Below, piece by piece: positions 35,384-39,618 of a stretch of DNA of 64,000 bases; positions within the stretch are counted from its first letter, which is position 1; the number at the start of each line of letters is the position of its first letter. The stretch is from Pseudoxanthomonas composti. GTDB taxonomy: Bacteria > Pseudomonadota > Gammaproteobacteria > Xanthomonadales > Xanthomonadaceae. Location of the stretch: the NCBI RefSeq assembly GCF_004122095.1, contig NZ_SAWZ01000009.1, forward strand, positions 1 to 64,000, in the 5' to 3' direction. A program made the position numbers and the translations under genes. Under the pieces are notes generated by a model. That model did not search any database, had not been told where the DNA came from, and saw only the letters and a program-made list of their open reading frames with translations.

Positions 35384-35459
35384 GGGCCTATAGCTCAACG
35401 GTTAGAGCAGAGGACTCATAATCCTTTGGTTCCAGGTTCGAATCCTGGTGGGCCCACCA
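35384..35459 (+). tRNA. tRNA with CAT anticodon (Ile2-like; possibly Met)
   Basis: A 76-nt cloverleaf: acceptor GGGCCTA / TGGGCCC, D-arm GCTC..GAGC, anticodon stem GAGGA / TCCTT with loop CTCATAA, T-arm CCAGG TTCGAAT CCTGG, and an encoded CCA. The anticodon is CAT. The D-loop and the anticodon/variable region are closer to E. coli Ile2 (lysidine-modified) than to elongator Met, but the two cannot be separated with certainty by eye. Its 3' end is the integration site of the island that follows. Confidence 0.95.
35445..35459 (+). repeat. attL: tRNA 3' end, 15-bp direct repeat
   Basis: CTGGTGGGCCCACCA, the last 15 nt of the tRNA, recurs exactly at 38341-38355. It marks the left end of an integrated element. 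Confidence 0.85.
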
Positions 35460-35493
35460 CGCTGAAGTCCCAGGAAATCCCATGTGGTGCCAA

Positions 35494-35518
35494 AACCCCC
35501 TGAAATCAGGGGGTTTTT
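35494..35518 (+). terminator. Rho-independent terminator after the tRNA
   Basis: Stem CCCCCTGA / TCAGGGGG around AA, preceded by AAAA and followed by TTTTT. It ends the tRNA transcript and lies inside the integrated element. Confidence 0.85.
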
Positions 35519-35561
35519 CGTTCCTGGCGTCCCAGGGCGTTCCGTTGAATCCCGGTGGGGT

Positions 35562-35625
35562 GTGAGTCAGGCTGTGAGTCGGCCGGAGTGTTCAAGACCT
35601 CCTGACTCACAAAAGGCTGACTCAC
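35562..35625. promoter_or_regulatory. Integrase arm-type repeats
   Basis: GTGAGTCAGGCTGTGAGTC at 35562-35580 faces CTGACTCACAAAAGGCTGACTCAC at 35602-35625, which ends at the integrase ATG. Related GAGTAAGACTGTGAGTAAGG occurs at 38261-38280 and TTACTCAGCC just inside attR. The placement near both ends fits arm-type binding sites and autoregulation of int. Confidence 0.55.
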
Positions 35626-36234
35626 ATGCTGACCGACACCAAATTGCGCGGGCTGAAGCCCCGTGCGAACCCTTACCGCATCGCCGATACCAACGGGCTG
35701 TGCATCGAGGTTCGCCCCACTGGCGCGAAGGTCTGGCGCTATCGCTACCGCCATGACGGCAAGCCGAGCATGATCACGATCGCCGAGTATCCGATCGTGT
35801 CGCTTGCGGAGGCGCGCGCCGAACGCGACCGGCTGCGTGCGCTGGTAAAGGGTGGCGCCAACCCGGCCCAGGTCGCCCGCACCGAGCGCGCCGCGAAGCA
35901 GGAGCAGGCCGCGACCACCTTTGCAGTTGTGGCTGCGGAATTGCTAGTCAAGCGGGCCAAGGAAGGCCTGAGCCCCGGCTCGGTCAAGCGCGAGCGCCGG
36001 ATGGTCGAGAAGGATCTTGTTGCCATCGGTGGCCTGCCCGTGGCCGAGGTGAGCGTCCCCACGCTGCGCGCGGCACTGCGCAAGATCGAGCGACGCGGTG
36101 CCGTGGAAACAGCGCATCGTGCCCGCGCACTGGCCGGGCTGGTGTTCCGCTACGCCATCGCCCCCGGTCGCGCCGACCGCAATCCGGCCAACGACCTGGT
36201 CGGTGCGCTGACGCAGCCGCAGACCCCGACGTAG
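35626..36234 (+). pseudogene. Truncated P4-type tyrosine integrase
   Basis: 202 residues covering the N-terminal DUF4102 arm-binding domain (MLTDTKLRGLKPRANPYRIADTNGLCIEVRPTGAKVWRYRY) and the core-binding SAM-like domain up to ADRNPANDLVGALTQPQTPT. Full-length members are about 400 residues; here a stop falls where the catalytic domain (R..HxxR..Y) should begin, and that domain is not found in the rest of the island. The enzyme can probably still bind DNA but cannot recombine it. High-GC codon use like the chromosome. Confidence 0.88.
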
Positions 36235-36431: not shown

Positions 36432-37700
36432 CTACTCCTCCATGAGCTTCTTGAAGCACCTCCGATGCCGCCGAAGCTGTTGGATGATCGCAGGCGATCC
36501 CGCTGCAATGGAAACTCGCTTCACGTAACTCGGGTAGCTTCTCTGAAACTCAGGCGCATGCTCTGTGTACTGCCGAAGCAGACGTTTCTGTCGCTGCACC
36601 GCCAGAGGTGTTTCCCCATCCATGGTCTTGGCCTTGGTATGCTGACGCACACCAGCCCGCATTTTCTTGTAATAGCGTGCAACCCCAGACGACCGCAAAA
36701 GGATGCGTTTCCCGTCGAACACCAGCCCAAGATACTGGAGCGGTTTGTCAGCGAGCGGCGTGAACGCACATTCCAATGTTTTGGCGGCCTGCATGGTTAA
36801 CCGAAGATTCGCCAGCTTGTCTTCTACAAATTTCTTAAAATCGGTAACGTGCTCAGCTTTAACGATAACAAGAATATCGTCACAGTAGCGCCGATAGTAG
36901 CCTCCGACATAGCGTGCAGCCTTGCTCATCTCCTTATCGAAGGCGAGCATGTAGATATTGGAGAGCAGGGCACTCATCGGCGAGCCTTGGGGGATCCCCC
37001 TACCCGAGCTGTTTACGTGGACCAAACCGGCTCCGCGAATAGCACTTCGAAACTCAGCCGCCTCACAGATTCTTTCCCTCTTCTCAAGGGCACTTCTGCT
37101 TATTCCAAGCGCCTTCCGTGCTGCAATCAGCTCAACCGAAGCATGTCTGGTAAGGGATCGATACACTGCATAGTGATCCTTAGGCAAGGTAGCTTTCCCA
37201 AGCAACTCAGCCCAAGCGCTTTTTAAGAACGCATGATCAAGAGAACCAAAGAAGTCCTTAACATCAAACCCTAGCGCCGTACACGGAGCATTGGAAGCAA
37301 CCCAATCAAACGCCTCCTTGGCAAAATTAACGTTCGATTTACCAAGTGGGCGGAATGCAATTACTTCTTCCTGGAGCCCTGCAATACTAAGCTTCTGCTC
37401 GTATAGTTCGGCCAGAACATAGTTGTAATATGCGTAGATCGCTGCATCGGCATGTGCTGCGTATCGAATGTCCCGAACCTTATTGCTCTTCTGTAGCTTA
37501 CCCGTCGCAAGTCTTTTAATGCGCGGACGCACGATATCCAGGCGTAGAAACGGAAAGAATGCATGCCTACTCACTGCAACAGGATCTGAAACTAGCTGCT
37601 CGCACTTTTTCGAGTTCAATGGCACATCAAAGTGCTTATAGCTTCGCTTCTTCTGGAGTGCTGCTTCCAGAGCAGAGCCAGGCGGACCTCTATCTCGCAT
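36432..37700 (-). CDS. Reverse transcriptase, DRT2 (UG2)-like anti-phage type
   Basis: A 422-residue stand-alone reverse transcriptase. The RT core is clear: LGFDVKDFFGSLDH (first catalytic Asp, about 146), GRGIPQGSPMSALLSNIYM (about 233-251), YYRRYCDDILVIV (catalytic Asp pair, 274-275) and LQYLGLVFDGKRI. Before the core, KKRSYKHFD (about 17-25), HAFFPFLRLD and VRDIRYAAHADAAIYAYYNYVLAE match my memory of Drt2 proteins, as do EEVIAFRPLGKSNVNFAKEAFDW and LPKDHYAVYRSLTRH. There is no maturase, HNH or fused domain, so it is neither a group II intron protein nor a diversity-generating RT. I start it at ATG 37700, with GGGGG four bases before it; a GTG at 37796 would add 32 residues read from the structured upstream region. 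The family assignment rests on recall, not a search. Confidence 0.72.
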   Translation of the reverse strand: MRDRGPPGSALEAALQKKRSYKHFDVPLNSKKCEQLVSDPVAVSRHAFFPFLRLDIVRPRIKRLATGKLQKSNKVRDIRYAAHADAAIYAYYNYVLAELYEQKLSIAGLQEEVIAFRPLGKSNVNFAKEAFDWVASNAPCTALGFDVKDFFGSLDHAFLKSAWAELLGKATLPKDHYAVYRSLTRHASVELIAARKALGISRSALEKRERICEAAEFRSAIRGAGLVHVNSSGRGIPQGSPMSALLSNIYMLAFDKEMSKAARYVGGYYRRYCDDILVIVKAEHVTDFKKFVEDKLANLRLTMQAAKTLECAFTPLADKPLQYLGLVFDGKRILLRSSGVARYYKKMRAGVRQHTKAKTMDGETPLAVQRQKRLLRQYTEHAPEFQRSYPSYVKRVSIAAGSPAIIQQLRRHRRCFKKLMEE

Positions 37701-37988
37701 TAAGCCCCCAATATCTACAGGGCGGGGCTGGCTGTGGCGACCGCATGCCCCCCCTGCTGGTACAGCACAGGCCCCATCTAAGGAGACCCTACCCACCCCA
37801 GTCGGTTACCGGGGTTTAGCCACACATATACAAGATACTTGTATAGCCTGCTCACGGAGGAACTTATGGAGACAATCGTGGTCGAACTGACCCGGATCAT
37901 CTTGATCACAGTGTTCCGCTGGTCGACGTGCGCTAGCGCACGCTGCCCTGGCGTGATAAGGACACCCCCGCCTACAAATTAGACGGGC
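37701..37988 (-). ncRNA. Candidate DRT2-type template RNA upstream of the RT
   Basis: About 285 nt between a predicted promoter and the RT start, read on the RT strand. Hairpins visible in order: CCGCC/GGCGG near 37990-37968; CGTGCG-CTAG-CGCACG at 37942-37927; GGTC/GACC near 37893-37881; an 8-bp TATACAAG-TAT-CTTGTATA at 37845-37827; ACCCC/GGGGT at 37815-37795; and TGCTG-TAC-CAGCA near 37770-37758. ACA triplets occur at 37914-37912 and 37842-37840. DRT2 RTs use a structured RNA encoded directly upstream as template. The boundaries given are the predicted start site and the RT start codon; the true 3' end is unknown. Confidence 0.5.
37778..37900 (-). CDS. Possible neo-type reading frame inside the template RNA
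   Basis: On the RT strand, a frame open from 37978 to a TAG at 37780-37778 contains an ATG at 37900, giving 40 codons starting MIRVSSTTIVSISSSVSRLY. In known DRT2 systems the protein is not read from the linear RNA but from concatemeric cDNA copied from it. The relevant fact here is that this frame has no stop for 66 codons, so any template unit inside it whose length is a multiple of three would yield an endless frame. There is no obvious ribosome site; translation from the chromosome itself is doubtful. Confidence 0.3.
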   Translation of the reverse strand: MIRVSSTTIVSISSSVSRLYKYLVYVWLNPGNRLGWVGSP

Positions 37989-38422: not shown

Positions 38423-38916
38423 CTCTGAGCATCTCTTGACCAGCGCTGCGATGCCTGATCCATGTTCTGGAGAGTGACGTCCCCGAGCTATTTGTTTTGC
38501 CGGCTCGTAAGCTTTGCCGAGGCGCAGTGCTTCCTCATTAGCTACTTGTCTTTGGTTGGGCCGACCGACGTCCGCGGCTCTAGAATTGTCTGCTACTGCT
38601 CCTCGCGGAATTTTAGGACTAGCCCGCTTCTATCTCGATGTCGCCTGTTGACAGCTCAGCCCGGCAGTAGCAATCTCACCTGCAAGGAGCGTAGAAACTC
38701 CTCGTACAGCGGTACCCACCTCCGACAAGCCGGTGGGTTTTTTGTGCCTTGCGTTTCAGCGAGGCGCAGCCGACGTGATGCCTGCGTCGGGAGGGCGGCC
38801 AATACAACACCCGCAAGGGGAATACGCCCGCCGTCTGTACGCGGTTTCTAACCTCCCGACTTCCCGTCCGCCAATCACGGCGGACGGTCACTTCATGGTG
38901 AGCAGGAGAGGCCACG
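38423..38916. other. Long leader region before the 233-residue gene
   Basis: Nearly 500 bp without a convincing gene. It contains an intrinsic terminator at 38714-38743, then a GC-rich stretch with inverted repeats (GGCGGACGG against CCGTCCGCC near 38866-38888). A plus-strand frame through 38733-38990 overlaps the gene start and could encode a short protein, but nothing in it is recognisable with confidence. A regulatory leader RNA or a small unrecognised gene are both possible. Confidence 0.4.
38714..38743 (+). terminator. Intrinsic terminator in the leader region
   Basis: Stem ACCCACC / GGTGGGT with an 11-nt loop, followed by TTTTTT. No gene ends just before it on this strand, so it may terminate a small RNA or act as an attenuator for the downstream gene. 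Confidence 0.65.
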
Positions 38917-39618
38917 ATGGTGGAGTACACGTTCGACGATCAGCAGATGCAGGGCGACGTTCTGTCAGAGACCAGTCGGCAGCTGCTTGAGGAGATCAAG
39001 CGCTATCTTCAGGGCTCGGCGTGGCTGGTGTCGCCGGGTACGGCAGGCCATGCCGTCGGAGGGGAGGCACAGACCGACATGGCGGACTTGGCAGGCTGTC
39101 TTGAACAAGCAGCCGCGCAACTTGAGTCGCTACTGCACGATCTGTCGCGACTGCGGTTGATTGGCGTGTCACAGGCCGCGACCGATGAAGACGCAGATGC
39201 GCAGACCGATCGTGAGCGGCTAAGCCAAGCGGTTGGCGAAGCGAGTGAGACGGACGAGCCCGCGTGGAGTTTCGGCGTCACGCTGGATCAGTTCGACAGG
39301 CTGGACACTCTGGTAATGGGAATCAAGGCGTTTGGCGATGCCGTCCATGCTGATGGCTCGGCCGAGTTTTCCGCCGGCACTGTTTGCACGCTCGGCCAGA
39401 CCATCTTCGATCGCGCTGTCGAGGTGCATGACCTTCTTATGGAAATCGAGACGCAAGCGCTGCCTGCATCCGCGCATCGCCGCTGGTCTGTAGAAGAGGC
39501 CGCGCCCGCCTATGGTCTGACGCCCGCTCGCCGTGCCGGCAAGGTAATGAGAGTCGAGGAGCCGCCGTGTGTCTACCTATCGTGCATGTCGCAACCGGAT
39601 TTGCTGCGGCTGCACTGA
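38917..39618 (+). CDS. Hypothetical protein
   Basis: A 233-residue acidic, Gln/Glu/Asp-rich protein, mostly helical by composition, with no signal peptide or membrane segment. A good AGGAGAGG lies 5 nt before the ATG. The N-terminal half (TSRQLLEEIKRYLQG.., LAGCLEQAAAQLESLLHDL) looks like paired amphipathic helices. I recognise no domain. The last 30 residues (from about 204) have a different, Pro/Cys-containing character and may result from an altered 3' end. Confidence 0.7.
   Translation: MVEYTFDDQQMQGDVLSETSRQLLEEIKRYLQGSAWLVSPGTAGHAVGGEAQTDMADLAGCLEQAAAQLESLLHDLSRLRLIGVSQAATDEDADAQTDRERLSQAVGEASETDEPAWSFGVTLDQFDRLDTLVMGIKAFGDAVHADGSAEFSAGTVCTLGQTIFDRAVEVHDLLMEIETQALPASAHRRWSVEEAAPAYGLTPARRAGKVMRVEEPPCVYLSCMSQPDLLRLH

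What the first reader, a model, noticed from the sequence alone, without database searches (positions are those of the whole stretch)
37701..37988. Region upstream of the RT has the properties of a neo-encoding template RNA
Seen: a TTGTTA-17-TAAAAA promoter about 285 nt before the RT; a run of hairpins; and, on the RT strand, the first seven stop triplets (37974 to 37816) all in a single frame, so the other two frames stay open across the region. One of them is open for 66 codons and has an ATG at 37900. Known: DRT2 copies its RNA by rolling-circle reverse transcription into concatemers that encode an almost endless protein. Inferred: this region is such a template. Two ACA triplets in the region are 72 nt (24 codons) apart; whether they bound the template is a guess.
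Basis: partly seen in the sequence, partly recalled or inferred. Interest (0 to 1): 0.85.

Follow-up and report, generated by a model that had tools for sequence, protein, structure and literature searches.

The report
DRT2 template RNA with antisense neo

Summary
The RT (36435-37700, minus) is a DRT2: NCBIfam Drt2 equivalog 456 bits, cut-off 390; best fold match is the Klebsiella DRT2 RT. The 290 nt upstream look like a DRT2 template RNA: promoter, 5' hairpin, variable template, pseudoknot pair, tower hairpin, shared with Luteimonas sp. RC10 (L001, RT 79% identical).

On the plus strand lies GGAGGA-ACTT-ATG (37856-37868) in a frame open over 37782-37979 and in L001. A profile of eight Klebsiella-type Neo repeats ranks these two frames first and second of 3012 (two other profiles did worse).

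The 72-nt ACA pair is not conserved. Template ends are not settled: best guess 37833-37964 (132 nt, TGT/TGT), alternative 126 nt. A split sigma70-like promoter, beyond shuffles in 20 of 27 relatives, is unrecognisable in the window and L001. A DRT2 whose jump motif and promoter depart from the Klebsiella type; no expression data.

The parts
36435..37700 (-). DRT2 reverse transcriptase, 422 aa, YCDD active site
   Evidence: NF041746 456 bits, cut-off 390; PADLOC Drt2 5.6e-137; PDB 9c0i 2.2e-90; fold search rank 1 is 9c0i. pN 0.127, pS 0.81 against L001
37995..38023 (-). promoter of the ncRNA-RT transcript: TTGTTA (38023-38018), 17 nt, TAAAAA (38000-37995)
   Evidence: sequence, same spacing in L001
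37716..37988 (-). DRT2 ncRNA; ends approximate
   Evidence: position by analogy with the 280-nt Klebsiella ncRNA (PMC12039810); conserved in L001
37967..37987 (-). 5' hairpin (SL1, 5' handle): CCCGUCUA-AUUUG-UAGGCGGG
   Evidence: folds in both sequences, invariant in 2 of 2
37833..37964 (-). best-guess reverse-transcription template, 132 nt = 44 codons; rival ends give 126, 138 or 147 nt
   Evidence: TGT at both ends, in-frame and open antisense in window and L001; boundaries inferred, not shown
37962..37964 (-). candidate jump motif 1 (TGT), in the place of Klebsiella ACA-1
   Evidence: inference
37830..37832 (-). candidate jump motif 2 (TGT), in the place of Klebsiella ACA-2
   Evidence: pseudoknot strand begins 8 nt after its start, as 9, 7 and 8 nt in sister loci L131, L132, L135 (L133's best pair was another one); inference
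37782..37979 (+). open antisense frame (66 codons) that holds the neo proto-gene
   Evidence: stops at 37779 and 37980; open over 37818-37979 in L001 too
37856..37868 (+). Shine-Dalgarno GGAGGA, 4 nt, ATG (37866-37868); a second pair GGAGACAATC-GTG has its start at 37878
   Evidence: identical in L001; an open frame with such a start site in 53 of 5000 shuffles
37866..37964 (+). neo core METIVVELTRIILITVFRWSTCASARCPGVIRT (before the repeat junction)
   Evidence: conserved in L001; Neo profile match
37829..37843 (-). [quoted passage not shown]
   Evidence: invariant in 2 of 2; 37825-37843 wholly identical in L001 but for one change next to it at 37824
37819..37824 (-). pseudoknot strand 1, UGUGGC
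   Evidence: pairs with 37733-37738
37733..37738 (-). pseudoknot strand 2, GCCACA, in the tower loop
   Evidence: aligned with GCCGCA of Klebsiella-type loci; a second alignment puts it two columns off
37795..37815 (-). buttress-like hairpin ACCCC...GGGGU
   Evidence: one compensatory change C-G to U-A against L001
37718..37756 (-). tower-like hairpin CAGGGGGGGC...GCCCCGCCCUG

Best explanation
This is a DRT2 anti-phage system. The region 37716-37988 is transcribed, with the RT gene, as a structured ncRNA. The RT copies a template inside it over and over by jumping from its 5' to its 3' end, so that the cDNA is a tandem repeat. Second-strand synthesis makes it double-stranded, and the strand antisense to the ncRNA (the plus strand here) is a repeating, stop-free neo gene with the core METIVVELTRIILITVFRWSTCASARCPGVI-...-RYLYSLLTEEL, whose product arrests the infected cell. 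Shown here: the RT family, the RNA anatomy shared with L001, the antisense frame with its ribosome-binding site in both, and its weak similarity to Klebsiella-type Neo repeats. Inferred from Klebsiella DRT2: copying, jumping, second strand, transcription, translation, growth arrest. Most likely repeat 132 nt with TGT as jump motif instead of ACA. How the repeat is transcribed is open: the usual split -35/-10 pair is not recognisable; by comparison with relatives the places where it should be hold GTGATA (37953-37958) and TATAGC or TAGCCT (37842-37849).
For: RT: NF041746 equivalog over its cut-off, PADLOC Drt2, PDB 9c0i by sequence and fold. RNA: 5' hairpin, template-end hairpin, buttress-like and tower-like hairpins and a pseudoknot pair in window and L001; identity to L001 is 74% in the template middle (37880-37949) against 92-95% at the 5' border, 93% at the start site and 100% in the template-end hairpin, the Klebsiella pattern, while RT synonymous sites are saturated (pS 0.81). 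Antisense frame: open with SD and start in both. A profile of 8 Klebsiella-type Neo repeats ranks L001_antisense0 (14.3 bits) and window_antisense0 (10.3 bits) 1st and 2nd of 3012 frames, 3000 of them from shuffled DNA. Context: of 29 DRT2 upstreams scanned without any frame criterion, the best split-promoter unit is divisible by three with an open antisense frame in 21; of the 20 that beat their shuffles, 16. Window and L001 are sister (97/92) to L131-L133, whose 129-nt units have motifs at both ends that differ between loci but agree within each (ATTGCA, TTGCGA, ATTAC).
Against: No split sigma70 promoter: all 60 shuffles of the window score at least as high as the window, and 21 of 60 as high as L001. 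The 6 nt at the -10 place, 37844-37849, are only 50% identical to L001. The jump motif is a guess: several short in-frame pairs fit, and different landmarks favour 126, 132 or 138 nt. The Neo match depends on the profile: with all 12 Neos the window falls to rank 9, and a sister-only profile (4 Neos) finds neither antisense frame. Substitutions do not single out the antisense frame: 12 of 22 differences in 37866-37965 lie at its first codon position; pS 0.24 and pN 0.18 in the antisense ORF, 0.14 and 0.17 in the open sense frame. The pair counts have no power with two sequences (251 of 500 shuffles as good) and the pseudoknot alone is not beyond chance (67 of 500 shuffles). Only two sequences of this clade were found.
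Confidence: 0.75

Rival explanations
1. DRT2 system with a concatemeric cDNA that is not translated: the repeat DNA itself, or a product of another kind, is the effector, and the antisense frame is a relic.
For: No recognisable split promoter in window (60 of 60 shuffles as high) and L001 (21 of 60); the -10 place is the least conserved stretch I measured (3 of 6 nt changed in 37844-37849). DRT9 and DRT10, other Class 2 DRTs, make repeat DNA without a Neo (PMC12632851, passages).
Against: SD-ATG and the antisense frame are kept intact while the template middle changes; one Neo profile picks this frame; the sister clade keeps the neo architecture.
Confidence: 0.13
2. One reading: neo is read on the RT strand, in the 66-codon sense frame with the ATG at 37900.
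For: The frame is open in the window and, over 37818-37978, in L001. With the profile of all 12 Neos the best real sense frame, window_sense2, ranks 21st of 3012, not far below the window's antisense frame at 9th.
Against: The known neo is antisense (PMC12039810); I see no Shine-Dalgarno sequence just before the ATG at 37900 (read); open sense frames are common by chance (852 of 5000); with the Klebsiella-type Neo profile the best real sense frame ranks 12th (L001_sense1) and the window's best 846th; in 9 of 13 in-frame units of relatives no sense frame is open.
Confidence: 0.03
3. A DRT2 ncRNA that has decayed: template and promoter are drifting and the system no longer works.
For: Promoter hexamers are poor, and the -10 place is worse in L001 (TACACC for TATAGC).
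Against: RT pN 0.127 against pS 0.81 and intact YCDD; RNA borders mostly 92-100% identical while synonymous sites are saturated.
Confidence: 0.07

Closest known systems
Klebsiella pneumoniae DRT2 (UG2; PDB 9c0i; PMC12039810, PMC11100668)
   Same: RT family and fold; ncRNA directly upstream with 5' hairpin, variable template, pseudoknot and tower; antisense stop-free frame with SD and start; start region like that of Klebsiella-type relatives (METIM in L045 and L001)
   Different: No ACA/ACA pair; split promoter not recognisable; probable unit 132 (or 126) nt instead of 120; RT 37% identical in the fold alignment
   Same: RT sister group, 97/92 support for window+L001 with L131-L133 (L135 found later and not in the tree); similar offset to the pseudoknot strand; antisense Neo with SD-start
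   Different: End motifs ATTGCA, TTGCGA, ATTAC (3 nt, TTG, in L135), TTGACA kept, unit 129 nt by hand anchoring; the unbiased scan gives 129 in L131-L133 but 127 in L135
DRT9 and DRT10 (PMC12632851, abstract start and passages)
   Same: Class 2 RTs that copy an ncRNA repeatedly
   Different: Homopolymer or short-repeat DNA, protein-primed, no Neo

Membership tests
DRT2 (RT protein family) | Scores over the curated cut-off of NCBIfam NF041746 | tested here: met
   456 bits, cut-off 390
DRT2 (RT protein family) | Fold of the DRT2 RT | tested here: met
   Foldseek rank 1 is 9c0i, E 1e-36, TM 0.80; model pLDDT 74.8
DRT2 neo system, Klebsiella type | ncRNA directly upstream with 5' hairpin, tower, buttress and pseudoknot | tested here: inconclusive
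   All five helices present in window and L001, one compensatory change, no power against shuffles with two sequences; pseudoknot alone within chance
DRT2 neo system, Klebsiella type | Template bounded by two ACA motifs | tested here: not met
   Minus-strand ACA only at 37914, 37842, 37735; 37914 absent in L001; TGT/TGT or CTT/CTT are candidates instead
DRT2 neo system, Klebsiella type | Template length divisible by three, one antisense frame open across the junction | tested here: inconclusive
   Antisense frame open in both; units of 126, 132, 138, 147 nt all fit, ends not known
DRT2 neo system, Klebsiella type | sigma70 promoter rebuilt across the repeat junction (TTGACA, 17, TATAAT) | tested here: not met
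   60 of 60 shuffles as high as the window, 21 of 60 as high as L001
DRT2 neo system, Klebsiella type | SD and start codon in the antisense frame | tested here: met
   GGAGGA-ACTT-ATG in window and L001; 53 of 5000 shuffles
DRT2 neo system, Klebsiella type | Phage-induced concatemeric cDNA, Neo protein, growth arrest | not testable with these tools
   needs experiment

The most novel reading that the evidence does not exclude
In this Luteimonas-type DRT2 clade the repeat junction rebuilds no host sigma70 promoter: neo is transcribed by something else, such as an alternative sigma factor or a phage RNA polymerase, so that the gene is both assembled and switched on by the infection. Wilkinson et al. 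(PMC12039810) predicted that some DRT2 systems may rebuild phage-specific promoters; this would be a candidate.
Probability: 0.2. Interest if true: 0.8.

Novelty: new variant of a known kind. Interest (0 to 1): 0.5.

Why it matters
Tang et al. (PMC11100668) reported that Neo annotation in divergent DRT2 clades was harder and might mean other mechanisms. Here the antisense neo signature is found, beyond shuffles, in DRT2 loci down to about 30% RT identity (L082, L051), with end motifs other than ACA that agree at both template ends. The window's clade is the informative exception: it keeps the antisense frame and start site but not the recognisable promoter, so it names a clear test of how neo can be switched on. 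I did not see the final journal version of Tang et al., which may already cover part of this.

Tried and rejected
ACA/ACA, 72 nt: rejected, 37914 not conserved. TTGTA/TTGTA, 144 nt, the longest exact pair: set aside because its 5' copy lies in the 5' hairpin. CGG/TGG, 148 nt, not divisible by three. GG/GG, 147 nt: only 2 nt pair. TG, 138 nt: third base differs in L001.

The choice between 126, 132 and 138 nt is by eye: distance from the 5' hairpin favours 126; offset to the pseudoknot strand and unit length of the sister clade favour 132; the shorter offset of Klebsiella-type loci favours 138. Alignment of the clade by MAFFT was ambiguous at both promoter places. Under the 132-nt unit CTGCCC and GATACT, identical in window and L001, come to 17 bp, but match the consensus poorly (4.3); not claimed.

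Codon-substitution tests did not tell antisense from sense. An RT codon comparison used a wrong start and was redone. A unit scan used a wrong offset and was redone. Of three Neo profiles (all 12, Klebsiella-type 8, sister 4) only the second puts both antisense frames on top; its shuffles keep base composition only. In one search, on dimers of the candidate units, rows of some L001 units were lost or replaced by another open frame; I draw nothing from that call.

Searches for more members of the clade: genome contigs gave L001 alone; window RT patterns in viral contigs gave none, two clade profiles only relatives of 24-37% identity; a 16-nt ncRNA pattern hit 6 viral contigs, none with a tblastn match to the RT; ncRNA DNA in plasmids gave 2 records with a 38-nt match in Streptomyces and in phages none. 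The genome search with the RT: 1 of 38 genus and 1 of 395 family genomes, the window's own; 3 of 398 phylum, 5 of 398 order, 2 of 16, 1 of 6 and 4 of 177 in later draws. With the Drt2 family: 1 of 199 relatives over the cut-off, its own, and G148 below it; 3 of 369 class genomes at 1e-60.

Choice of relatives: of 31 plasmid records with a match I fetched 7; the 3 phage records were not fetched; of 184 viral-contig relatives the tool kept 80, of which I used 10 (L049, cut off, was dropped, the rest score far lower). Of the 29 upstreams scanned 9 do not beat their shuffles at 1 of 60: window, L001, L034, L037, L038, L039, L041, L046, L050. Of the 21 in-frame units five are of that kind (L034, L039, L041, L046, L050). 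Four that beat shuffles are not in frame: L003 116, L036 145, L124 121, L135 127 nt. One search used 21 relatives anchored by hand, with motifs picked because they match; L037, L038, L039, L124 and L003 were left out because no in-frame unit was clear, and L036 (144) and L135 (129) differ there from the scan's choice. L037 by hand gives 121 nt. L134 duplicates L003.

Full report
What the RT is. The minus-strand ORF 36435-37700 is a DRT2 reverse transcriptase: NCBIfam NF041746 at 456 bits with a cut-off of 390, PADLOC Drt2 at 5.6e-137, phmmer 2.2e-90 to the solved Klebsiella DRT2 RT 9c0i. An AlphaFold2 model (pLDDT 74.8) matches 9c0i first, TM 0.80; ranks 2 to 10 are DRT9 and group II intron RTs at 0.44-0.55. 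The start codon shared with L001 is the ATG at 37700. The closest relative found is L001, Luteimonas sp. RC10, 79% identical.

What the literature says. I read PMC12039810 (abstract, main text, discussion, bioinformatics section, legends) and PMC11100668 (abstract, results parts 1 and 2, conservation section, discussion, legends part 1); of PMC12596737 and PMC12632851 only passages and the start of the abstract. In Klebsiella a 280-nt ncRNA lies upstream of the RT; a 120-nt template bounded by two ACA motifs is copied into tandem repeats; the junction joins a -35 and a -10 at 17 bp; [quoted passage not shown] In divergent clades Tang et al. found Neo annotation more challenging.

The observation. 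The stop pattern is rare in shuffles (5 of 5000). But every one of the seven sense stops lies at phase 1 of the plus-strand frame that holds ATG 37866. Plus-strand codons ending in TC, TT or CT followed by A give exactly this, so the pattern fits coding on the other strand.

The antisense frame. On the plus strand GGAGGA-ACTT-ATG stands at 37856-37868 in a frame open from 37782 to 37979. L001 has the same start site and an open frame, METIMVILTRIILATLLRWMVCACAHCPRVIRT against METIVVELTRIILITVFRWSTCASARCPGVIRT. An open frame with such a start site turns up in 53 of 5000 shuffles of 37818-37979. A profile of eight Neo repeats from Klebsiella-type loci (those that group in the tree with L043 and L033, whose RTs score 548 and 496 bits to 9c0i), built without window or L001, ranks L001_antisense0 first (14.3 bits) and window_antisense0 second (10.3 bits) of 3012 frames (12 real, 3000 shuffled); the best shuffled frame has 6.0 bits. 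With all 12 Neos L001 stays first and the window falls to ninth; with the four sister Neos neither antisense frame stands out.

The RNA. Window and L001 share the 5' hairpin, the hairpin at the template's 3' end, buttress-like and tower-like hairpins and a pseudoknot pair; 98.6% of 70 cells pair, 38.6-55.7% when the structure is slid, with one compensatory change; the shuffle control has no power with two sequences (251 of 500). The pseudoknot is UGUGGC:GCCACA here where relatives such as L131 have GCGGC:GCCGC, a paired change, though on its own it is within chance (67 of 500 shuffles), and a second alignment places its 3' strand two columns off. Identity to L001 is 74% in 37880-37949, against 92-95% at the 5' border, 93% at the start site, 100% in the template-end hairpin, 50% in the 6 nt 37844-37849 and 82-86% in the 3' scaffold, while RT synonymous sites are saturated (pS 0.81, pN 0.127).

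Relatives. I scanned 29 DRT2 upstreams (window and L001 included) for two matching motifs that would bring a -35 and a -10 to 15-18 bp, without asking for a frame (27, L135 and L136). The best unit is divisible by three, with an open antisense frame, in 21 of 29. In 20 loci at most 1 of 60 shuffles scores as high; 16 of these 20 are divisible by three (not L003, L036, L124, L135). The loci are partly related, so these are not independent. The end motif is ACA in the Klebsiella-type loci, exact or with a wobble; elsewhere, as anchored by hand, ATTGCA, TTGCGA, ATTAC, GTT, TATTA, GTATTA, TTGA, TAT/TGT. Of 21 hand-anchored relatives 20 have an SD and start codon in the single open antisense frame.

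The window's clade as exception. In a tree of 26 RTs window and L001 are sister to L131-L133 with 97/92 support, and those three have clear neo units of 129 nt. Yet all 60 shuffles score at least as high as the window's best split promoter, and 21 of 60 reach L001's. By comparison with the Neo repeats of relatives, by eye, the -35 place holds GTGATA and the -10 place TATAGC or TAGCCT (L001 TACACC or CACCTT); automatic alignment is ambiguous there.

The template ends. Requiring the same pair in window and L001, an in-frame distance and an open antisense frame leaves several candidates. TGT at 37964-37962 and 37832-37830 gives 132 nt; CTT at 37960-37958 and 37834-37832 gives 126 nt, with flanking wobble pairs. 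I prefer 132 because the pseudoknot strand begins 8 nt after the start of the second TGT, as 9, 7 and 8 nt in L131, L132 and L135, and the unit length is near the sister's 129; but the pairs are short and chance would give one or two. The four candidates read (126, 132, 138, 147 nt) encode the same core, differing by a few residues at the junction.

Verdict. A DRT2 system, very probably with an antisense neo, whose jump motif is not ACA and whose promoter cannot be recognised.

Noticed in passing
35384-36234: A tRNA-Met gene is followed by a 202-aa integrase with arm-binding and central domains but no catalytic domain match: it looks like the remnant of a mobile element beside the DRT2 locus.
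   Followed up: no
38786-38868: Rfam sRNA-Xcc1 (RF02221), 77.7 bits, on the plus strand.
   Followed up: no
38917-39618: ORF of 233 aa with an XAC0095-family domain, 34.4 bits against a cut-off of 34.
   Followed up: no
L040, L048, L051, L082, L123, L136 (upstream of the RT): DRT2 loci with RTs only about 30-37% identical to the window's show in-frame antisense units with end motifs other than ACA, each reached by at most 1 of 60 shuffles.
   Followed up: partly
L037, L003, L124, L038, L039: DRT2-like loci without a clear in-frame unit: best units L037 121 nt, L124 121 nt and L003 116 nt are not divisible by three; the two Calothrix loci L038 and L039 do not beat shuffles.
   Followed up: partly
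window 37781-37978, minus strand: One sense frame is also open in both window and L001; probably a side effect, not explained further.
   Followed up: partly
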